Origin: Bacteroidales bacterium | Lineage (GTDB): Bacteria; Bacteroidota; Bacteroidia; Bacteroidales; Marinilabiliaceae | Assembly (NCBI GenBank): GCA_017417385.1 | Contig: JAFPZF010000073.1 | Coordinates: 1 to 59,863, forward strand | Length of the DNA: 59,863 nucleotides | Direction: 5' to 3' | Part shown: positions 5,875-59,863 of the stretch, piece by piece | Layout of the letters: every line of letters begins with the position of its first letter | Numbering within the stretch: the stretch's first letter is position 1 | Program-made: the position numbers and the translations under genes | The notes under the pieces: generated by a model | What the model was told of the DNA's origin: nothing | Seen by the model: the letters and a program-made list of their open reading frames with translations, nothing else | Database searches by the model: none

Positions 5875-6297
5875 TTATCCGAGACGGAGCAACGAGGGGT
5901 TGATGTGCGGACCGTTATCATGATTGTGCTCGTGATGATGCCCTCCGCAGGAGTCGTGGCTACAACTTCCGTCGCCGTAGGTGATTGTGCCCTCTATATA
6001 CATCTTGAGGATGGTGTCGACGTCAAGACTTGGCGCTCCAGCGTGTAGCGCGATGTTCATCTCGGCGAGCATGTCTGCTGCGCCCCCACCTATTCCGCCA
6101 CATATCACGTCCGTGCAGTCGTGGCTCTTGATAAATCTTGGCATCGAGCCGTGCTCGTGCTCTGGCGCGACGAGTGTCGTCTTACTCGTGACAGTGTTGT
6201 TCTCGACTATGGCAACTGTCACTAGTGGCGCCTTGCCGAAGTGCTGAAAGAGGCGTCCGTCTGAGGTCGGGATGGCTATTTTCTGATATGAAATCAT
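5875..6297 (-). CDS. NifX/NifB-type dinitrogenase iron-molybdenum cofactor-binding domain protein with His-rich tail
   Basis: A 140-residue protein. The first 105 residues (KIAIPTSDGRLFQHFGKAP, then VICGGIGGGAADML) are the Nitro_FeMo-Co fold (PF02579), also found in many non-nitrogen-fixing anaerobes as a small metal-cluster-binding protein. The last 30 residues, SCSHDSCGGHHHEHNHDN, are rich in His and Cys and look like a metal-binding extension. No nif genes are nearby. It shares no operon with its neighbours. A cytoplasmic role in Fe-S cluster handling or metal storage is inference. Confidence 0.85.
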   Translation of the reverse strand: MISYQKIAIPTSDGRLFQHFGKAPLVTVAIVENNTVTSKTTLVAPEHEHGSMPRFIKSHDCTDVICGGIGGGAADMLAEMNIALHAGAPSLDVDTILKMYIEGTITYGDGSCSHDSCGGHHHEHNHDNGPHINPSLLRLG

Positions 6298-6368
6298 GCC
6301 TTTGTGCTGTAAATGATGAAAAAGTTAGGCAAAAGTAAGGAAAATATCGCAACTGAGGGGCTTTAGCG

Positions 6369-6399
6369 TTTGTCAAATAGGAAAAGTGTATTACCTTTG
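6369..6399 (+). promoter_or_regulatory. Promoter of tRNA-Leu
   Basis: TTTG (6369-6372), a 19-nt spacer and TACCTTTG (6392-6399) form a textbook Bacteroidota promoter about 20 nt before the tRNA. GGAAAAGTGT at 6380-6389 is the same box that precedes several accessory-gene promoters. Confidence 0.85.
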
Positions 6400-6419
6400 C
6401 ACTCGGAATTGAGAGAGAT

Positions 6420-6501
6420 GCCCTGATGGCGGAATAGGTAGACGCGTTGGTCTCAAACACCAATGGAGCGATCCGTCCCGGTTCGACCCCGGGTCAGGGT
6501 A
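6420..6501 (+). tRNA. tRNA-Leu (anticodon CAA)
   Basis: A class II tRNA. The acceptor arm GCCCTGA pairs with TCAGGGT (6494-6500, with a terminal G-U). The D arm contains GGCGGAATAGGTAGACGC. The anticodon stem is TTGGT/ACCAA with loop CTCAAAC, giving anticodon CAA. A long variable arm (TGGAGCGATCCGT) and a T arm, CCCGG TTCGACC CCGGG, follow. The 3' CCA is not encoded. Confidence 0.95.
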
Positions 6502-6530
6502 CATTTCCAAATATCTTTTTCATAAGACGA

Positions 6531-6558
6531 AGGCGAGCTGAACAAGTTCGCCTTTTTT
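6531..6558 (+). terminator. Terminator after tRNA-Leu
   Basis: GGCGA (6532-6536) pairs with TCGCC (6548-6552) and is followed by TTTTTT. It may also serve the convergent hemW. Confidence 0.7.
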
Positions 6559-6565
6559 CGTGTAC

Positions 6566-7669
6566 TTATATCAGCCGACAGAGGATGGCGTTGCTGATGA
6601 GCCAATGTCGCTCGGGGATGCGGACGTTCCCCGTCTCCGTCCTCTCTAGGAATCCGTCCGCCATCTCTCGCTCGACCTTAGGGGCTATCTCCCGCCTCGC
6701 TGCCTCAGAGAGCTGTGCGACATCGAGGCCCATCGACGTGCGCAGCGACAGCATGACTATCTCCTCGTCTATCTCCGCCTCAGTGAGCTCCTCCTCGACT
6801 AGCGAGCCGCCTCCAGCACAATAGGCTGCGACATCGGTGGTGTTTGTCCACCGACGCCTCCCGACGAAAGAAGCTGCCGCAGGACCAAAGCCGTAGTAGG
6901 GGACGCGCTGCCAATAGGATGTGTTGTGGACGGCCATTCGACCCGGGAGCGCGTAGTTGGAGATCTCGTAGTGGAGAAAGCAGGCAGAGCGAAGTGTACG
7001 AGTGACTCGCTCGTAGTCCTCGGCGACCTCGTCGTCGTCTCTTAGTCTGACTGCCCCTTTGCTCACGAGGCGGTCGAGCGGCGTCGACTCCTCGACTGTC
7101 AAGGCGTAGGCTGATAGGTGCTGGACGTCGAGGGCGACGAACTTCTCCAGGTCTTCCCCGAGGTCGTAGCCTTCGACCTTCGGGAGTCCAAAGATTATAT
7201 CGACACTGATGTTGTCAATCCCGACACTACGCAGCGCAGAGATGGCCGCCAGGACTTCAGACGAGTCGTGCCTCCTGTTGAGGAGACGCAGCATGTCGTC
7301 GTTGAGCGACTGCACTCCCATGCTGACGCGTGTGACGCCATGTCTGCTGAGGACGGAGGCGAGAGCGGGTGTGACATCGTCGGGATTGCACTCGACGGTG
7401 TACTCTGTGAGGCCCGAGAGGTCGAAGGAGTCTGAAATGGTGTCGAGAAGTCGCCCGAGACCCTCGAGACCGAGTGCCGAGGGCGTGCCGCCACCGACAT
7501 AGACTGTCGATGGTGCAGAGGCATATACAGAAGAACGACGCATATCTTCCCCCACTCGGGAAAGATATGCGTCGACTCGTTTCATATCTGTCGAACTGCA
7601 GAATGCGCAATATACACAGCGTGAGAGGCAGAAGGGGACATGCACGTAGATGCCGAGACGCTCTGCCAT
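6566..7669 (-). CDS. hemW: HemW-type radical SAM protein (heme chaperone / coproporphyrinogen III oxidase-like)
   Basis: A 367-residue protein. The N-terminus MAERLGIYVHVPFCLSRCVYCAFC carries the CxxxCxxC iron-sulfur site (C14, C18, C21) plus the extra Cys that marks HemW. GGGTPSAL, VECNPDD, RVSMGVQSL and VDIIFGLPKV are further family blocks. HemW-type proteins bind heme and are now viewed as heme-insertion factors rather than true HemN enzymes. The gene starts only 9 nt after the GH2 gene and is the last of the minus-strand run that starts at tyrS. Confidence 0.93.
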   Translation of the reverse strand: MAERLGIYVHVPFCLSRCVYCAFCSSTDMKRVDAYLSRVGEDMRRSSVYASAPSTVYVGGGTPSALGLEGLGRLLDTISDSFDLSGLTEYTVECNPDDVTPALASVLSRHGVTRVSMGVQSLNDDMLRLLNRRHDSSEVLAAISALRSVGIDNISVDIIFGLPKVEGYDLGEDLEKFVALDVQHLSAYALTVEESTPLDRLVSKGAVRLRDDDEVAEDYERVTRTLRSACFLHYEISNYALPGRMAVHNTSYWQRVPYYGFGPAAASFVGRRRWTNTTDVAAYCAGGGSLVEEELTEAEIDEEIVMLSLRTSMGLDVAQLSEAARREIAPKVEREMADGFLERTETGNVRIPERHWLISNAILCRLI

Positions 7670-7678
7670 GACGACTGT

Positions 7679-10441
7679 CTATTTCAATGCTGGCTTCAGC
7701 TCGTCCGGAGAGTCCTTGGTGAACATGTTGACGGCCGGAGCATTCTCGTTGAAGAGTTTCTGGAGCTGGTCGATGGTGACCGATGTCCGTGGGTTGAAGT
7801 CCTTGCCCTTCATGTAGCGGAGGACGGAGTGGCGTAGCTGCCTTGCGACAACCCTGTGGTCGAGGTCGCTGTCTAGGTCCATCGTCGTCAAGAGGAGCTT
7901 GCCCTTGCCGACCTTGACCTCGAACATCATGCCGAGCTTGCGCGATATGTGCCACGTGTCGACAGGCTGCACCATCGGCTTGAGCTCACGAGGGAGCTCG
8001 CCCATGTTGACGACCTGCGTGTAGTTGGTCAGCTCCCACCAGTTGAGGTTCTGCCAGTCGTCGGTCTCGAAGTCGGCGAAGACAGGATGCTCAGCGTTGA
8101 TGTAGGCGCCCGTCGTATGTGGTGGGCGCATCTTGAACCAGCTCGTGTTCCAGAAGACGGGGAGGAAGTGGTGCTTGACGTCGTCGCCATACTTGACCTT
8201 GCCGCCACAGAGGAGGAGGACCTTGCCGCCCTTCTCGAGGCACTGCAGTGCGTCGTCATTGAGCTCGTTGGCGACGAGGATGCCCGCAGGCTCTTCGAGA
8301 TTCAGGTCGTTGTCGTAGACCCATATCTCCCACGAGTTGCCGCCTGCACCATTGGCCTCTGTCGTCGTCCGCAGAGTGAGCTTTGCAGGGAGCTGGACGC
8401 CGTATTTCTTGACGACTGCGCCGAGAGGTATCTGGACGTTGGCCTTGTCGCGAGACTTGCCCTCGTCGATTCGCTGCGTCGTCGTCTTGGAGTTGAAGAG
8501 CTCGACGCCCCGCTCATCGACAAGTGTCGTCAGGATCTGAGCATAGTTGAGCGCACGACCGGATGCGTTGTAGATGTCGATGGCAGCACGCAGAGTGTCG
8601 GCAGAAGTAAAGACGAACTTAGGGAGCTTCATGAGGGGGACTATGTCTGAACAGAAGCCCCTCCAATACTCCTGAGTCTGGATGCCGTCAGCCTTCTCCT
8701 CCCAGAATACGTTGAGTGGTCCGACGAGAGCCGTCCCCTGACCAGAGTAGTCGTTGAGGCCGAGTATCTGGAAGCCCGAGTAGCCGGCTGTGCGGAGGTT
8801 ACGCTCGATGTCGTACTTGTAGGCGAGGTTCTGGAGATGGCGGCTGCTGACGAGGAACTTCTTCTCCATGTCCGCCATGCCGTTGTCGTGGAGGAGGTCT
8901 CGGAAGATGACGAAGTTGTCGGCCTTGTAGACGCCCCGGTACTTAGATATCTCCGAGAAGTCTGGGAAGGCGCACCACTGCCCCTGCTCGTGAGCGAGGA
9001 TTGGGCTGTCGTTGTCTTTTTCTCCCTTGTAGTTGCGTGGGCGGAGCATCATGTCGTCGAAGTTGTCAACAGACTGAGGCATAGAGCGGTCCCACTCGAG
9101 GCCACGGGCGCCCCCCTTGACGTGGTAGTCCGAGGCGTCGTCCCACGCCCAGCCACCGCCGACACTGGCGACGCAATAGATATGAGTCGTGTCGTAGTCG
9201 TGCATCTTCGCGACCCACTCGCGACCCCAGCCTACCCAGTCGCCTGCAGGCTCGTTGCCAGCGGCAAGCATGATCATAGAGGGGTGATGGCCGTATGTGT
9301 CGATGATGCGCTTGGTCTCGCTGTCGAGGTAGGCGTCTATGGTCATGCCGCGCTTGAGTTTCACACCATGGTTAGGCCATGACGGTCCCTCCGGCTGGAG
9401 GTAGAAGCCGAGGCTATCGGCAGCGACGAAGGCAGCCTCCGGGGGGCAGTAGCTATGGAAGCGCATCATGTTGAGCCCGTAGTCCTTGCACTTCTTGATG
9501 ATCTTGACCCAGCTCTGGATGTCGGTCGGGGGGAAGCCGGTAAGGGGGAAGTTGCAGTTCTCGACGGTGCCACGGATGAAGATAGGCTTGCCGTTGAGGA
9601 CGATATCCTTGCCGACGGCCTTTACCTTGCGGAGACCGAAGCGGACGGTCACGTTCTCGCCCTTGTGCTTGATGACCTTCGTATAGATATAAGGGTTGTG
9701 CTCGTCCCAGAGGCGGGGGTTCCTGCCGATCTTGATGCGGTAGGGAGTGTTGTCGATAAGGATGTGGACAGCCTTGAAGTCGTCCTCGGGGATGACACGG
9801 ATGACGTGAGACTTGCCACCCTTGCGGAGCTCAATCTTGCCGGCGAGACCGTTCCAGTTGCCCTGAGTCTGGTCGGTGACGCTATGAGAGTCCTGACCGA
9901 CACAGACGTTCTCGATGCCGTTGTAGACCTCGACCTCGATCTCGTTCTCCTTGCCAGGCGCGAGGAGGCCCGTCAGGTCGTACTCGTGAGGGACGCAGAG
10001 AGACATCTCGTGACCGACGAGCTTGCCGTTGACGCAGAGAGTCGTCTCGATATGTGGGCGCTCGATGAAGAGAGTTGCCTTGCTGCCGTTCCAGCTTGAG
10101 GGGACGTTGACCTTGCGCTTGTAGACGACGCGGCCGACGTAGTGCTTCTCTGGGGTGAGGAAGAAAGGGAACTTGACGTGCCCCGGCTCGCGGTACTTCT
10201 TCATCTTCGGGTTGAAGTAGAAAGAAGAGTCGTAGAGGGAGCCAGTCCATTGGGTAGAGACCGAAGGGTCGTCGCCGATATGGTTGGTCAGCAGAGAGCC
10301 AGGGAGAGAGACCTTGCCGGAATACTTACCGTCCTTCGTAGCCATGTCCCACTGGCCGGCGAGGCTGATAGCATTCTGAGCTGCCACAGTACCGGAGAGG
10401 AGAGTGGCGGACAGAAGGAGTAAGTGTCTCAGTCTAATCAT
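7679..10441 (-). CDS. Secreted glycoside hydrolase family 2 protein
   Basis: A 920-residue protein with signal peptide MIRLRHLLLLSATLLSGTVA ending AQ. The order is an N-terminal sugar-binding jelly roll (about 25-220, LAGQWDMA and ERPHIETTLCVNGKLVGH), an immunoglobulin-like middle (220-280) and a GH2 TIM barrel from about 280. GNEP (395-398) gives the likely acid/base Glu397, and AHEQGQW gives the likely nucleophile Glu485. A long C-terminal part (600-920) has no domain that I recognise. Linkage specificity cannot be read from sequence; related Bacteroidota enzymes act on galactosides, glucuronides or glycan side chains. It sits between GT32 and hemW with gaps of 21 and 9 nt. Confidence 0.88.
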   Translation of the reverse strand: MIRLRHLLLLSATLLSGTVAAQNAISLAGQWDMATKDGKYSGKVSLPGSLLTNHIGDDPSVSTQWTGSLYDSSFYFNPKMKKYREPGHVKFPFFLTPEKHYVGRVVYKRKVNVPSSWNGSKATLFIERPHIETTLCVNGKLVGHEMSLCVPHEYDLTGLLAPGKENEIEVEVYNGIENVCVGQDSHSVTDQTQGNWNGLAGKIELRKGGKSHVIRVIPEDDFKAVHILIDNTPYRIKIGRNPRLWDEHNPYIYTKVIKHKGENVTVRFGLRKVKAVGKDIVLNGKPIFIRGTVENCNFPLTGFPPTDIQSWVKIIKKCKDYGLNMMRFHSYCPPEAAFVAADSLGFYLQPEGPSWPNHGVKLKRGMTIDAYLDSETKRIIDTYGHHPSMIMLAAGNEPAGDWVGWGREWVAKMHDYDTTHIYCVASVGGGWAWDDASDYHVKGGARGLEWDRSMPQSVDNFDDMMLRPRNYKGEKDNDSPILAHEQGQWCAFPDFSEISKYRGVYKADNFVIFRDLLHDNGMADMEKKFLVSSRHLQNLAYKYDIERNLRTAGYSGFQILGLNDYSGQGTALVGPLNVFWEEKADGIQTQEYWRGFCSDIVPLMKLPKFVFTSADTLRAAIDIYNASGRALNYAQILTTLVDERGVELFNSKTTTQRIDEGKSRDKANVQIPLGAVVKKYGVQLPAKLTLRTTTEANGAGGNSWEIWVYDNDLNLEEPAGILVANELNDDALQCLEKGGKVLLLCGGKVKYGDDVKHHFLPVFWNTSWFKMRPPHTTGAYINAEHPVFADFETDDWQNLNWWELTNYTQVVNMGELPRELKPMVQPVDTWHISRKLGMMFEVKVGKGKLLLTTMDLDSDLDHRVVARQLRHSVLRYMKGKDFNPRTSVTIDQLQKLFNENAPAVNMFTKDSPDELKPALK

Positions 10442-55607: not shown

Positions 55608-56561
55608 ATGAAGGTATCGGTGATAGTGCCGTGCTACAACGTGGCGAAGGTGATAGCGCCACTGATGAGGAGCATAGAGAGTCAGGACTACGAAGATTTC
55701 GAGGTCATATTCGTCAATGACGGGTCGAAGGATGAGACGGGGACGGTATTGAGGACCTTCTGTGAGAAAGATACGAGGTATAGGATAGTAGAGAAGGAGA
55801 ATGGCGGAGTCGGGAGTGCGAGGAACGCAGGTCTCGAGGTCGCCCAGGGGGAGCTGATATTCTTCGTAGATGGTGACGACGAGATATTCCCGGAGACGAT
55901 AAGCAAGATGGCTGGCCTCATGACGGAGGGAGTTGACATAGCAGTCGGGGCGTTCATAAACACAGACGGGACGAGGATAGAGTTCCCGGAGATGGAGGAC
56001 AGGGACAGATGGCTACGGGTGACGATGACGAAGGGAGGCCTGACACTATGGAACAAGATGTTCAGGCGGAGCATAATAGAGGGGAACAAGATACGATTTG
56101 ACACGACGACGAAGAAGAGCGAGGACCATCTCTTTACGGCAGAATATCTGTGTCATAGCGAGGGGAGGATAGCCGTCACGAGCTATGCGGTGTACAAATA
56201 TGTCGAGAACCCGATGAGCGCGTCGAACATATCGGGGACGACGAGGACGTTCGCACCATGGATAGCGGACGGGGTGCACACGTCGATAAAGATATACAGG
56301 TTGCTGGAGCCGAAGCTGAGCAGTGGGACGCTGAGGGAGCTAAGGTATGACTCATATCACAAGTACAGGAGGGCGAGGCACTCGGCGAAGAAGCTGCACT
56401 GCACGGACAAGGCGTTCTATGAGGGTCTGCACAGAGAGATGAGGAGCATCATGCCGGAATGGGAGATGGCGTTCTTTGCCGTCAGGAGAAGGGTGAGCAT
56501 AATAGGGAAGTCGCTCGGGAAGAAGATACGGAGGGCGATAGGCAGAAAGCAAGAATCATGA
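55608..56561 (+). CDS. Glycosyltransferase family 2
   Basis: A 317-residue GT-A enzyme: MKVSVIVPCYNVAKVIAPLM, FEVIFVNDGSKDETG, EKENGGVGSARNAGLEVAQG and FFVDGDDEI with the DGDD metal motif. The later acceptor half has LWNKMFRRSIIEGNKIRFDT and SEDHLFTAEYL, as in capsule/LPS hexosyltransferases. No polysaccharide gene is adjacent except the three GT genes at 10.5-13.2 kb. It overlaps the next gene by 4 nt (ATGA). Confidence 0.92.
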   Translation: MKVSVIVPCYNVAKVIAPLMRSIESQDYEDFEVIFVNDGSKDETGTVLRTFCEKDTRYRIVEKENGGVGSARNAGLEVAQGELIFFVDGDDEIFPETISKMAGLMTEGVDIAVGAFINTDGTRIEFPEMEDRDRWLRVTMTKGGLTLWNKMFRRSIIEGNKIRFDTTTKKSEDHLFTAEYLCHSEGRIAVTSYAVYKYVENPMSASNISGTTRTFAPWIADGVHTSIKIYRLLEPKLSSGTLRELRYDSYHKYRRARHSAKKLHCTDKAFYEGLHREMRSIMPEWEMAFFAVRRRVSIIGKSLGKKIRRAIGRKQES

Positions 56562-57178
56562 GAGCGAGGGCGATAATAGCAGCGGCAGTGGTGGCAGTGG
56601 CAATGACACTGACAGGATGCGGAGCGAGCAGGCCGGCGGCAACAGACATGGTGGCGACCGACATAGCGTCGGAAGGGAAGCCACTGATAGTATATTTCTC
56701 GCATGCGGGGGACAACTACCTCGTCGGGAACGTAGATACGGGCAACACGGCGATAGTCGCGAGGCAGATAGCGGAGATGACGGGCGGGGATACGTTCGAG
56801 ATAAAGACATCGAGATATGACGGGAAGACGAAGAGGGAGCTGAGGGGAATCTCGAAAGAGGAGAGCGAGAAGGGGGAGCTGCCGGAATATGAGGGGGACG
56901 TGGACGTCTCGGGCTACAAGGTGATATTTATTGGTGGGCCGATATGGCACGGGACATACCCACGGGTGGTCTTCACATTCATGAGGAGGCACGACCTGAA
57001 CGGGAAGACGATAGTGCCGTTCGCGACGAGCGAGGGGTCGGGACTCGGGCGGACAGTGGAGGACGTCGAGGGTGCTTACCCGCGGGCGAAGGTCGTCGGG
57101 GCGTTCAGCATCAAGGGACATAAGGTGAGGGGAGATAAGGCGAGCGTTGAGGCGTGGATACGGGGGATGGGATATTAG
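56558..57178 (+). CDS. Flavodoxin-like lipoprotein
   Basis: A 206-residue protein. The lipoprotein signal ends MTLTGC (Cys21). The flavodoxin fold has PLIVYFSHAGDNYLVG (phosphate loop), GNTAIVARQIAEMTGGDTFE, VIFIGGPIWHGTYPRVVFTF and KTIVPFATSEGSGLGRTVED. Exported flavodoxins of this type are common in anaerobic Bacteroidota. FMN binding is likely, and the electron partner is unknown. It is translationally coupled to the GT2 gene although the roles seem unrelated. Confidence 0.88.
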   Translation: MRARAIIAAAVVAVAMTLTGCGASRPAATDMVATDIASEGKPLIVYFSHAGDNYLVGNVDTGNTAIVARQIAEMTGGDTFEIKTSRYDGKTKRELRGISKEESEKGELPEYEGDVDVSGYKVIFIGGPIWHGTYPRVVFTFMRRHDLNGKTIVPFATSEGSGLGRTVEDVEGAYPRAKVVGAFSIKGHKVRGDKASVEAWIRGMGY

Positions 57179-57183
57179 GTTAT

Positions 57184-57430
57184 TTCTATAAATTGTTTTT
57201 TCTGCGTTGACTTTGTCTTCATTCCTCACGCTCGGAAATTGGCGCAAGCTCCATTTCTCTCGCTTAATCGGAATGTTGCATTCAACTTTGAAATCCTCAT
57301 GTACTACAGTACACTCCGGTGTTCAAAGTCTCATGCGCCTTGGCTTCGCCTCATGTGCTCTCGCTCGGCAATATGAGCAAGCTCATTGCGCTCGCTTAAT
57401 CGCACAAGTGAAAAACCTAATTTCTAGAAA
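57184..57430 (+). repeat. MITE-like repeat family A, second copy
   Basis: The ends are TTCTATAAATT and (inward from the right) TTCTAGAAATT, both preceded by T/AT. It shares the ACTTTGAA...TTCAAAGT hairpin with the copy at 24471 and has two GCAAT-type hairpins instead of three. The first is GAAAT...ATTTC (57235-57257), a compensated change from GCAAT...ATTGC. Confidence 0.8.
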
Positions 57431-57526
57431 TCCCCTAGAGGGTGAAGAAGGGGACGGGGAGAGAAGGACGGGGAGAGAAGGTGTTTATAGTAGCGGAGTA
57501 CAAAGTCAAAGAAGTAACCTTTGAGA

Positions 57527-57605
57527 CACTCAGTGCTAAACTAACTGTAATCCTGAGTGGCAGGTAAGCCCATAAGAGTTTGAATGTACTCTTATGGGCA
57601 ATTTT
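57527..57605 (+). terminator. Two hairpins with an intrinsic terminator; possible small RNA or 3' end of a lost gene
   Basis: CACTCAG/CTGAGTG (57527-57559) is followed by a perfect 12-bp stem, GCCCATAAGAGT (57568-57579) with ACTCTTATGGGC (57588-57599), then AATTTTCATTT. A short frame before it reads VKEVTFETLSAKLTVILSGR then stop, which could be the end of a decayed gene. The upstream AACCTTTG is a poor promoter. Confidence 0.55.
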
Positions 57606-57612
57606 CATTTAA

Positions 57613-57664
57613 GGCACAATAAAAGGGAGGAACTCCCGTTACTATAGTAGATATAAACTTAGAC
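57613..57664 (+). repeat. Cassette linker segment, unit 1
   Basis: GGCACAATAAAAGGGAGGAA, then CTCCCGTTACTATAGTAG, ATATAAACTTAGA. It contains hairpin GGGAG-GAA-CTCCC and the palindrome TACTATAGTA. Related segments are at 58482 and 59104, each just before a secreted-protein gene. Confidence 0.8.
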
Positions 57665-57668
57665 AATT

Positions 57669-58325
57669 ATGAAGAGAGTGATAATGATGCTCATGATGAT
57701 GGTGAGCGTGTGTAGCGTTTGGGGGCAAAGTAATAATAATTATTCGGGTCCTACACTCGAAAAGATGATAGTAGAAGCATGCTACAATCGGGTTAATCCT
57801 AATATTACATACGATGCGGGATATTGCAAGATAGACTATCCGATGGGTGACGTTCCTGCAGACAGAGGATGTTGCAGTGATGCTGTAATCAGGGTTTTAC
57901 GTGACATTGGGATAGACCTGCAGGAGATGGTACACAAGGATATTATGCTTGGAACGAGACCACTTTTGGCGTGTCCTGATTCTGTGTGGGCTAACCCTTA
58001 CAAAAACATCAAACCGGATACTAACATTGACCATAGGCGGGTTTGGACTTTGTTGAAATTCTTTCGTATTCAGAATCGACAATATGCAAGTCCTTTATTT
58101 CGAACGTGCAAAATTAATAAACCTCTTCGTCCGGGAACAATTGTAATCTGGGAACTTTGGCCTGGACAGGGGCACATAGGTATTGTGGTGGATGGTGAGA
58201 ATGTGTTTCATCAAATTGGTTATGGTCAAGAGATTAGTGAAGATTTGCATAGTTATAAAATTGTTGCAGCCTTTGCTATTTTCGGACCAGTGTATAACGA
58301 TTTAATTAAAGAGATATATGAATGA
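57669..58325 (+). CDS. Secreted DUF1287 (NlpC/P60-like) protein, cassette 1
   Basis: A 218-residue protein. The signal peptide MKRVIMMLMMMVSVCSVWGQ is followed by the DUF1287 pattern: YPMGDVPADRGCCSDAVIRV (likely catalytic Cys69), DLQEMVHKDI, NIDHRRVWTLLKFF and GQGHIGIVVDGENVFHQIGY (His169). The family is predicted to cleave or bind peptidoglycan; activity is not shown. Its AT-rich, TTT/ATT-using 3' half differs from the rest of the window, suggesting acquisition. The promoter/leader and first five codons match the 58536 gene, although the mature parts are unrelated. Confidence 0.85.
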   Translation: MKRVIMMLMMMVSVCSVWGQSNNNYSGPTLEKMIVEACYNRVNPNITYDAGYCKIDYPMGDVPADRGCCSDAVIRVLRDIGIDLQEMVHKDIMLGTRPLLACPDSVWANPYKNIKPDTNIDHRRVWTLLKFFRIQNRQYASPLFRTCKINKPLRPGTIVIWELWPGQGHIGIVVDGENVFHQIGYGQEISEDLHSYKIVAAFAIFGPVYNDLIKEIYE

Positions 58326-58353
58326 TTTTTTGAATAGCACAGAAGGAATGTAG

Positions 58354-58509
58354 AATCTTTCCTTTGGGGATTATATTCGGTATGTAAATACGCACAATGA
58401 GCCTACAGTTGGAGAGTCGTTTGACTAGTATAATAACAGACTTGATGACATGAGAAGAGAAATTTCTGCTCATGTTTGCAACACAATAAAGGGAAAGCAT
58501 TCCCGTTAA
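58354..58509 (+). pseudogene. Coding remnant between cassettes 1 and 2
   Basis: One frame reads NLSFGDYIRYVNTHNEPTVG then ESFD, a TAG stop (58426-58428), YNNRLDDMRREISAHVCNTI and KGKHSR before a TAA inside the unit 2 hairpin. Normal amino-acid content and a single internal stop suggest the decayed 3' end of a gene. The family is unrecognised. Confidence 0.5.
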
Positions 58510-58530
58510 TATAGTACATTTAAACTTAGA
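58482..58530 (+). repeat. Cassette linker segment, unit 2
   Basis: CACAATAAAGGGAAAGCATT, then CCCGTTAATATAGTACATTT, AAACTTAGA. The hairpin is GGGAA-AGCA-TTCCC; relative to units 1 and 3 the closing G-C has become A-T on both arms. Confidence 0.8.
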
Positions 58531-58535
58531 CAATC

Positions 58536-58988
58536 ATGAAGAGAGTGATAACGATGCTATTATGTATAATTGCTTTAAGTGCAAGGGGACAATACCCTCC
58601 AACATCATTAGATACAATAGCAAGTATATTTCAGCAAGACAACGAAGATATTCGCGTTAATTGGTATTATTATTGCCCGCAATGCGGCTCGTTATTAGAA
58701 GCCTATACAAAAACAGAGGAAATGAACGATTATGGAACAAAATTCCAGCCTTCAATAATTTGTAAGCATCGGGCACAAAAATATATCTATGATGGTATAG
58801 AACACTATAAAATATACAAGGAAGGTGTTCTTGTGTATGAGCAATTCTTGTATAATAGATTTCCTGTACATGTAGATATTTTTACTATAATTCGTGCGCA
58901 AGAGGATTGGATTTGCTCGGGGAGTAGTAACTTAAAACAAATAGTTGAAGATGAATATAAAAATTCAATAGCGAGACATAAAAGATGA
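58536..58988 (+). CDS. Secreted protein of unknown function, cassette 2
   Basis: A 150-residue protein. The signal peptide MKRVITMLLCIIALSARGQ is close to that of cassette 1 (MKRVIMM) and of cassette 3 (LSARGQ). The mature part has a Cys pair, YYYCPQCGSLLEAYTK, and later ICKHRAQKY and DWICSGS, so a small metal- or disulfide-stabilised fold is possible. I recognise no family. Codon use is AT-rich. The gene could encode an immunity or adaptor protein; this is inference from the array layout only. Confidence 0.65.
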   Translation: MKRVITMLLCIIALSARGQYPPTSLDTIASIFQQDNEDIRVNWYYYCPQCGSLLEAYTKTEEMNDYGTKFQPSIICKHRAQKYIYDGIEHYKIYKEGVLVYEQFLYNRFPVHVDIFTIIRAQEDWICSGSSNLKQIVEDEYKNSIARHKR

Positions 58989-59094
58989 AGCAACAAAAGC
59001 TGCCAACGACTCAGATGCTGTGACATTTGAAAATGGAAACCCTGGTGCTATCACTGGATCTATGGTTCCTAATGCATCTTCTGGAGATTTTTAG
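58981..59094 (+). pseudogene. Coding remnant between cassettes 2 and 3
   Basis: In a frame different from the preceding gene the sequence reads KDEATKAANDSDAVTFENGN, PGAITGSMVPNASSGDF, then TAG (59092-59094), and stays in frame with the linker peptide GTINGRNSRYY. It looks like another decayed 3' gene end. Confidence 0.45.
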
Positions 59095-59103
59095 GGATTG
59101 ATT

Positions 59104-59154
59104 GGCACAATAAACGGGAGGAACTCCCGTTACTATAGTAGATATAAACTTAGA
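59104..59154 (+). repeat. Cassette linker segment, unit 3
   Basis: GGCACAATAAACGGGAGGAA, then CTCCCGTTACTATAGTAG, ATATAAACTTAGA. It differs from unit 1 by one base over about 50. Hairpin CGGGAG-GAA-CTCCCG. Confidence 0.8.
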
Positions 59155-59188
59155 ACCTCGCACTGTAAAGGTCAAGTGCTAGATGATT

Positions 59189-59617
59189 ATGAAGATAACA
59201 TTGCTGATACTATTAAGTATATTTACTTTAAGTGCGAGAGGACAGGTTTATGAGTCTGATGAAGCTCAGGTATCCGAAGAGCTAGAATGGAAGAACAGGC
59301 CGTTCCAGTCTAACAATACAATTCGTGTAAACCTCAATGATTCAACGCTACAAATTCGAGGGGATTTTACATTAGATTATCGTATTCAACGATATTTGTA
59401 TGATTTATATTCATCAGATGGTGTTTTGGTTCATTATTATGAAATTAAGAATTCATTCGGACATAGAGACATATTAATGCTGGGTGAAATGTCTGGCAGT
59501 ATTGTTACTATTACTCTTGGTTCTTATCGAAAAGAAACAGTATTTATTTATAATGGTAAGATGTTTTCGGGGATAGAGTTTAATAATATAAGAAAAAATG
59601 AAGAATGTATATATTGA
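59189..59617 (+). CDS. Secreted beta-rich protein of unknown function, cassette 3
   Basis: A 142-residue protein from the second ATG (an ATG two codons earlier is possible). The signal peptide MKITLLILLSIFTLSARGQ is followed by SNNTIRVNLNDSTLQIRGDF, YRIQRYLYDLYSSDGVLVHY and GSIVTITLGSYRKETVF, a strand-rich pattern resembling the small DUF3244-type Bacteroidota proteins; that match is weak. It is separated from the linker segment by 34 extra nt, unlike cassettes 1 and 2. Confidence 0.65.
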   Translation: MKITLLILLSIFTLSARGQVYESDEAQVSEELEWKNRPFQSNNTIRVNLNDSTLQIRGDFTLDYRIQRYLYDLYSSDGVLVHYYEIKNSFGHRDILMLGEMSGSIVTITLGSYRKETVFIYNGKMFSGIEFNNIRKNEECIY

Positions 59618-59708
59618 CAAGAGCGTAATGCCTACAGTTTAGTGGTACACCGGAGTAGATAGAGCTGAATAGGGAAAGCGAGGGAGCATGGTGAGTGGAA
59701 TGTAGTTA

Positions 59709-59863
59709 AGCGATGATTTTTATACGATGCTAAATAGTGGCTTCAGGACTGGGTATGCTTATGTTGATGCGAATGGGTTTACTCACGATGGTCCGAAATA
59801 TACGATTAATAATGCTGAGGATTTGACTAGAGTCATGCGTGACCCAAAAACAGACGTCAACGC
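59709..59863 (+). pseudogene. Open frame running off the right edge (gene fragment or remnant)
   Basis: The frame SDDFYTMLNSGFRTGYAYVD, ANGFTHDGPKYTINNAEDLT, RVMRDPKTDVN is open to the window end and has normal protein composition. The only in-window Met start is at 59727, without a visible ribosome site, and stops lie just upstream, so it may be the tail of a decayed gene or an interior part. The family is unrecognised. Confidence 0.45.

What the first reader, a model, noticed from the sequence alone, without database searches (positions are those of the whole stretch)
57613..59863. Array of unrelated secreted proteins joined by a shared hairpin linker and gene remnants
Three genes (57669, 58536, 59189) follow near-identical linker segments of about 50 nt and, in two cases, share their first five codons, yet the mature proteins are unrelated (DUF1287-like, Cys-rich, beta-rich). 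Between them lie coding remnants (58354-58509, 58981-59094) that stay in the same frame as a linker-encoded peptide (TIKGRNSRYYSRYKLR type). This suggests a site where gene ends are swapped by recombination at the linker. It resembles orphan effector/immunity arrays of interbacterial competition loci, although no such system is proven here. Composition is more AT-rich than upstream. The array continues beyond the right edge.
Basis: partly seen in the sequence, partly recalled or inferred. Interest (0 to 1): 0.8.

Follow-up and report, generated by a model that had tools for sequence, protein, structure and literature searches.

The report
Shared-leader cassettes of secreted proteins
At the end of this contig three small genes for exported proteins carry nearly the same start region, which has been reshuffled between them and may fold as an RNA knot; this looks like a local way of giving different exported proteins one common start module, but what the proteins do is not shown.

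Summary
The linkers are real. A 51-nt leader precedes three co-oriented, AT-rich genes with signal peptides (41, 50 and 41 of 51 bases shared). Related leaders occur at two other loci of this genome, before a second DUF1287 gene and before a truncated 18-codon ORF; one likely homologue precedes a secreted-protein gene in another species of the genus. The three units are mosaics: leader, start region and signal peptide support three different pairings (39 of 44 informative sites; 0 of 2000 permutations). This supports recombination or gene conversion at the linker. Unit 3, both other-locus copies and the relative can form a pseudoknot 9 nt before ATG, with two double changes between species; units 1 and 2 lack it. 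Not supported: coding remnants and a conserved linker peptide. 'Unrelated' is doubtful for P2/P3. No toxin or array-linked recombinase was found. rAID orphan-immunity arrays are the closest known system, but the recombinase criterion fails. Best reading: separately transcribed cassettes sharing a leader and export-signal module exchanged by ordinary homologous recombination; a role in bacterial competition is conjecture.

The parts
57568..57599 (+). Terminator-like hairpin (12-pair stem) just before leader 1
   Evidence: the 60 nt before leader 1 fold at -25.0 kcal/mol
57613..57668 (+). Leader 1 (without the pseudoknot segment)
57669..58325 (+). P1, secreted DUF1287 protein (218 aa), NlpC/P60-like amidase-type family, C69 and H169 kept
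   Evidence: Pfam PF06940 2.6e-34; alignment A2
58447..58476 (+). Hairpin just before leader 2 (region 58420-58479 folds at -12.1 kcal/mol)
58480..58535 (+). Leader 2 (without the pseudoknot segment)
58536..58988 (+). P2, small secreted Cys-containing protein (150 aa), orphan; codons 1-8 like P1, codons 9-19 like P3
58354..58509 (+).
58981..59094 (+).
59104..59188 (+). Leader 3, complete form
59155..59179 (+). Pseudoknot-like segment: ACCT/AGGT interleaved with GCACT/AGTGC, ending 9 nt before the ATG at 59189 (3 nt before the alternative ATG at 59183)
59183..59617 (+). P3, small secreted protein (144 aa; alternative start 59189), orphan
59706..59861 (+). Open frame running off the contig end (52 codons), no convincing relative

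Best explanation
The locus is a short array of separately expressed cassettes. Each has a common leader (probably a promoter plus 5' untranslated region, inferred because leader 1 and the C17 copy directly follow strong terminator-like hairpins), a common signal-peptide start, and its own exported protein. The leader and signal-peptide start are exchanged between units by ordinary homologous recombination or gene conversion, while the mature parts differ or diverge fast (P1 unrelated to P2/P3; P2 and P3 perhaps paralogues). In its complete form the leader RNA can form a small pseudoknot ending 9 nt before the start codon, which would tune translation; units 1 and 2 lack it, so their expression should differ. 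Shown: leader family, mosaic blocks, presence at other loci and probably in one congener. Inferred: promoter, RNA fold, regulation. Conjecture: the cargo serves competition between bacteria (a peptidoglycan amidase and immunity-like proteins).
For: Leader repeats; five copies at three loci of this genome and no other match at E<=1 in it (which scored 70 of 245 first-look candidates). The C22 copy precedes a second DUF1287 gene (58% identity) and the C17 copy a truncated 18-codon signal-like ORF. Three-block mosaic: block A pairs u1/u3 at 9 of 9 informative sites, block B u1/u2 at 10 of 13, block C u2/u3 at 19 of 22; 39 of 44 against a permuted mean of 24.7 and maximum of 30, 0 of 2000. Congener G003: profile hit E .0013 whose ATG is the start of a 162-aa AT-rich ORF with a signal-like N-terminus. 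Pseudoknot: 35 of 36 pair cells, two pairs with changes on both sides, the same 9-nt gap to ATG in all four sequences; 1 of 27 fetched hits outside the own genome has it, namely G003.
Against: The G003 hit alone is borderline: E .0013 in one of 61 genomes, about .08 expected by chance. Both double changes come from that one sequence; 24 of 500 shuffles reach the covariation score and 116 of 500 the count of further pair types. C17 breaks one pair and is missed by the strict pattern scan. The upstream hairpin is weak. The blocks were drawn, although the permutation test refits the breakpoints; block C partly reflects that u1 has another signal peptide, so it alone does not prove exchange. No TAnnTTTG box in the 220 nt before any of the six starts. 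No experiment on any protein.
Confidence: 0.6

Rival explanations
1. A rAID-like orphan immunity array: a recombinase inserts immunity genes at the repeated intergenic motif, and the proteins neutralise toxins of neighbours in the periplasm.
For: Co-oriented genes of 144-218 codons, all below 41% GC, with conserved intergenic sequence; these are rAID criteria as described in PMC12247911 (passages). The contig end leaves one side unseen.
Against: No recombinase upstream of the array; the genome has 3 PF00589 matches, on C28, C57 and C26, none on a contig with a leader copy. P1 is an enzyme family with its Cys and His kept, not a known immunity family.
Confidence: 0.15
2. Simple tandem duplication of one ancestral secreted gene, followed by very fast divergence of the mature part; the shared leader is just the slowest part, and no exchange takes place.
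For: P2/P3 mature parts weakly similar; leaders and signal peptides similar.
Against: P1 belongs to DUF1287 and shows no similarity to P2 or P3 (P .44 and .37); three blocks support three different pairings (0 of 2000 permutations), which one tree would not give.
Confidence: 0.15
3. The linker is a site for a site-specific system (integron attC or invertible promoter) that moves or switches cassettes.
For: Repeated linkers between cassettes; two interleaved inverted repeats in linker 3.
Against: All units are co-oriented; no inverted pair of 20 nt or more in 56000-59863; no GTTRRRY/RYYYAAC core on direct reading of the linkers (motif recalled); no array-linked integrase; leaders also stand alone at C22 and C17.
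Confidence: 0.07

Closest known systems
rAID (recombinase-associated acquired interbacterial defence) arrays of Bacteroidales
   Same: Short co-oriented genes under 41% GC joined by conserved intergenic sequence
   Different: No upstream tyrosine recombinase, no recognisable immunity family, leader copies scattered at three loci, an amidase-type gene in the array
Polymorphic-toxin orphan cassette arrays (Rhs, Maf, CDI; recalled, plus the start of the abstract of PMC3482391 in the listing)
   Same: Tandem units with a constant part and a variable part exchanged by recombination
   Different: The constant part here is leader plus signal peptide, and no toxin core or delivery protein was found
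Mycoplasma-type surface-protein families with constant 5' region and signal peptide (Vsa/Vpma; recalled, no call)
   Same: Constant 5' region and signal peptide joined to differing mature proteins
   Different: No inversion seen, each unit keeps its own start, no linked recombinase found
DUF1287 (PF06940) amidase-like family, CHH triad per PMC10318531 (passages)
   Same: P1 matches it and the C22 protein is 58% identical to P1
   Different: Their sequence subtype (RGCC, insert near residue 100) differs from the eight relatives aligned

Membership tests
rAID array | Tyrosine recombinase upstream of the gene array | tested here: not met
   The gene before unit 1 is a flavodoxin-like ORF; 3 PF00589 matches in the genome, none on a contig with a leader copy. 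The right side of the array lies beyond the contig end.
rAID array | Two or more co-oriented short genes (about 100-300 codons) under 41% GC | tested here: met
   218, 150 and 144 aa; GC .406.336.317
rAID array | Conserved intergenic sequence motif of the rAID kind | tested here: inconclusive
   A conserved linker exists, but the published motif was not available (the first rAID paper, sought by its recalled DOI, is not held)
rAID array | Genes related to T6SS immunity genes | tested here: not met
   P1-P3 match no immunity family over a curated cut-off; P2/P3 best E .071/.015 in Pfam.02/none in PADLOC, none at E<=1 in NCBIfam and PHROGs. Known orphan immunity proteins were not compared directly.
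Integron cassette array | attC core sites GTTRRRY / RYYYAAC and an integron integrase | tested here: not met
   Linker letters as printed lack the cores by eye (core motif recalled); the integrase search found no array-linked match
DUF1287 (PF06940) | Profile match above the curated cut-off | tested here: met
   P1: 118.7 bits, cut-off 25
DUF1287 (PF06940) | Cys-His-His triad | tested here: met
   In P1: C69 and H169 invariant in 10 of 10 aligned proteins; H181 in 9 of 10, replaced in the C22 protein. That a CHH triad exists is from PMC10318531; its assignment to these residues is inference.
DUF1287 (PF06940) | Peptidoglycan amidase activity | not testable with these tools
   Needs a biochemical assay
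Known structured RNA (Rfam 15) | Match to a curated family | tested here: not met
   No match at gathering score in the window; three matches at E .72-1.1 far below their gathering scores in 57400-59863

The most novel reading that the evidence does not exclude
A genus-level cassette system in which one structured RNA leader plus signal-peptide start serves both as the expression control and as the homology for swapping, so that a changing set of exported conflict proteins comes under one translational switch; copies that lose the pseudoknot become a differently regulated class.
Probability: 0.2. Interest if true: 0.75.

Novelty: new variant of a known kind. Interest (0 to 1): 0.48.

Why it matters
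In the cassette arrays of competition proteins that I know of, the constant part is a toxin core or a recombination site. Here it is the expression and export module. If confirmed, the leader is a marker for finding fast-evolving secreted proteins that sequence searches miss, and it is a small candidate RNA regulator without an Rfam family.

Tried and rejected
Rejected: toxin 3' end with a conserved C-terminal peptide coupled to an immunity gene. The linker frame ends in TGA overlapping ATG in units 1 and 2 (direct reading), but the peptide is not kept in C22 and C17, and stops lie inside or before it in units 2 and 3.

Rejected: leader widespread among relatives. The exact pseudoknot pattern was found in 0 records of genome contigs and 0 of viral contigs; both tools warn that the own genome or near kin may be left out, and the G003 form would not match that pattern. 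With up to 3 mismatches it is in 1 of 71 family genomes, the own one (C22 is missed for a one-base insertion). The 77-nt linker 1 query matched 2 of 61 genomes at E<=.01: the own one and a 24-nt partial match in G036. The C22 query matched 35 of 61 genomes at E<=1, outside the own genome only by short stretches of 15-48 nt; I did not inspect those.

Rejected as chance: two further own-genome matches (C47, inside a coding gene; C57, not inspected); P2 matches in two order genomes; tail-frame matches in 15 other genomes at E .02-.1 (I looked at nine loci, some printed on the wrong strand; three are adenylate kinase-like by recall); the P3 match to CDKN3 at E .11 in solved-structure sequences (P1 and P2 had none); and the G008, G014 and second G003 profile hits. 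The other outside profile hits were checked only for the pseudoknot.

Led nowhere: scans of viral contigs with P1, P2, P3; plasmids with P2, P3 and tail, phages with tail. The second genome-contig scan used the P1/C22 pair and chose only signal-peptide patterns, so its empty result says little. In one search the printed 'upstream' DNA was downstream for six of eight DUF1287 relatives; the profile search covers this instead: no hit lies at any of those eight genes (70 candidates per genome scored). In one search the C17 row of the codon table was out of register and is not used. Remnants 1 and 2 were not searched in whole genomes.

Structure prediction was never possible: machine busy, so no fold search was made.

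Full report
What is there. The window is the whole of contig C30 of its genome, which ends at 59863. Downstream of a flavodoxin-like ORF lie three co-oriented ORFs of 218, 150 and 144 aa with signal-like N-termini (signal peptides judged by eye). Their GC is .406.336 and .317, against .545 for the first 57 kb. Each is preceded by a repeated linker. Over 51 nt the linkers agree at 41 (u1/u2), 50 (u1/u3) and 41 (u2/u3) positions.

Where else. In the same genome a profile of the leaders finds five copies at E<=1: three here, one at C22 and one at C17 (which scored 70 of 245 first-look candidates). The C22 copy stands before a second DUF1287 gene, 58% identical to P1. The C17 copy stands before an ATG followed by only 18 codons. 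The segment AACCTCGCAC(T/A)GTAAAGGTCAAGTGCTAGA is in C17 and unit 3, and with one extra A in C22, and is absent from units 1 and 2. With up to three mismatches its core occurs in 1 of 71 family genomes, the own one. In 61 genomes (own plus 60 relatives) the profile gives 28 rows outside the own genome; the best is G003, same genus, E .0013. By chance about .08 such hits are expected over 61 genomes. But in G003 the model's ATG falls on the start of a 162-aa, 35%-GC ORF with a signal-like N-terminus, next to a second co-oriented 166-aa ORF of the same GC that lacks the leader. Only this one of 27 fetched outside hits carries the pseudoknot pattern (one further row was not fetched).

Mosaic. I split the aligned start regions into linker (A), the five bases before ATG plus codons 1-8 (B) and codons 9-19 (C). 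The cut was suggested. Among informative sites A pairs u1 with u3 (9 of 9), B pairs u1 with u2 (10 of 13) and C pairs u2 with u3 (19 of 22). Three blocks explain 39 of 44 sites; 2000 permutations of the site order, each with its own best breakpoints, gave a mean of 24.7 and a maximum of 30. Beyond codon 19 identity is at the level of chance (13, 13 and 15 of 60). One tree would not give this; exchange or conversion at the leader and start can. A caution: the low identity of u1 in block C would also follow from a different signal peptide of older origin.

RNA fold. In unit 3, C22, C17 and G003, ACCT can pair with AGGT, and GCACT with AGTGC (ACAAT with ATTGT in G003), in interleaved order, that is a pseudoknot, which ends 9 nt before ATG in all four. 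On these four sequences 35 of 36 cells pair; two pairs change on both sides; sliding the partner by 1-3 columns leaves at most 41.7% paired; 24 of 500 shuffles reach the covariation score and 116 of 500 the number of further pair types. Both double changes rest on G003 alone, and C17 breaks one pair. A strict pattern scan of 333,682 strand-bases gave four sites: unit 3, C22, G003 and one unrelated site; C17 is missed for its broken pair. Rfam has no match at its thresholds, and only chance-level ones below them.

Transcription. Leader 1 follows a 12-pair terminator-like hairpin and leader C17 a strong hairpin (60-nt folds -25.0 and -23.2 kcal/mol; -12.1, -12.1 and -14.8 before units 2, 3 and C22). 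I infer that the leader starts a new transcript. No TAnnTTTG box, the Bacteroidetes -7 element as I recall it, lies in the 220 nt before any of six starts, although such boxes lie within 200 nt of 4 of 10 other window positions checked. So the promoter, if present, is of another type.

Proteins. P1 is DUF1287. Ten aligned members keep C69 and H169; H181 is kept in nine. PMC10318531 (passages) lists DUF1287 among amidase-type folds with a Cys-His-His triad. Eight of 60 other genomes have a DUF1287 relative at E<=.001, and none of those eight genes has a profile hit for the leader. P2 had no relative in 60 genomes and only two chance-like hits in 392 other order genomes; P3 had none in 60. Of 500 shuffles one aligned as well as mature P2 with mature P3 (15 pairs tested); they may be paralogues.

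Remnants. Codon statistics do not mark the two intergenic stretches as coding (P .107 and .097, tail .077, upstream intergenic .373; two controls inside intact genes .02 and 0, which were also in the training set). The linker peptide has a frame change in C22 and C17. I therefore drop the remnant part of the finding, while noting that P near .1 does not exclude decayed coding DNA and that remnants 1 and 2 were not searched in whole genomes.

Compared with known systems. The rAID arrays described in PMC12247911 (passages) share gene size, orientation, low GC and conserved intergenic sequence. They are defined by an upstream tyrosine recombinase, which is missing here; the genome has three PF00589 matches, none on a contig with a leader copy. 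The locus may work like such an array but is not filed as one. Eight literature searches listed no title or abstract start describing this leader; I read only passages of two papers, and the library is not complete.

Verdict. A real, unusual leader family, so far seen in this genome and probably one congener, with good evidence of exchange and suggestive evidence of an RNA pseudoknot. Function of the cargo is open.

Noticed in passing
L112 (G003:C17:131000-150900), about 8590-10163: In the congener, a small HTH-like ORF (by eye), then two co-oriented AT-rich secreted ORFs, the second with the leader; neither protein has a match over a cut-off (best Pfam E .077 and .21; none in NCBIfam at E<=1).
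   Followed up: partly
L055 8500-11000 (G000:C17): Leader copy before an 18-codon ORF, next to small ORFs including a membrane-like protein; looks like a variable region.
   Followed up: no
L065 about 6200-8200 (G000:C26): Partial tyrosine recombinase match (177-codon open frame) close to a restriction specificity-like ORF; may be a phase-variable specificity locus (gene naming from recall).
   Followed up: no
window 14000-57000: Strong G and A skew of the + strand over much of this stretch (GC skew up to 0.39, AT skew up to 0.46).
   Followed up: no
window 57625-57637 and 58491-58504, minus strand: The linker hairpin followed by a T run reads as a terminator on the minus strand in units 1 and 2.
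   Followed up: no
   Followed up: no
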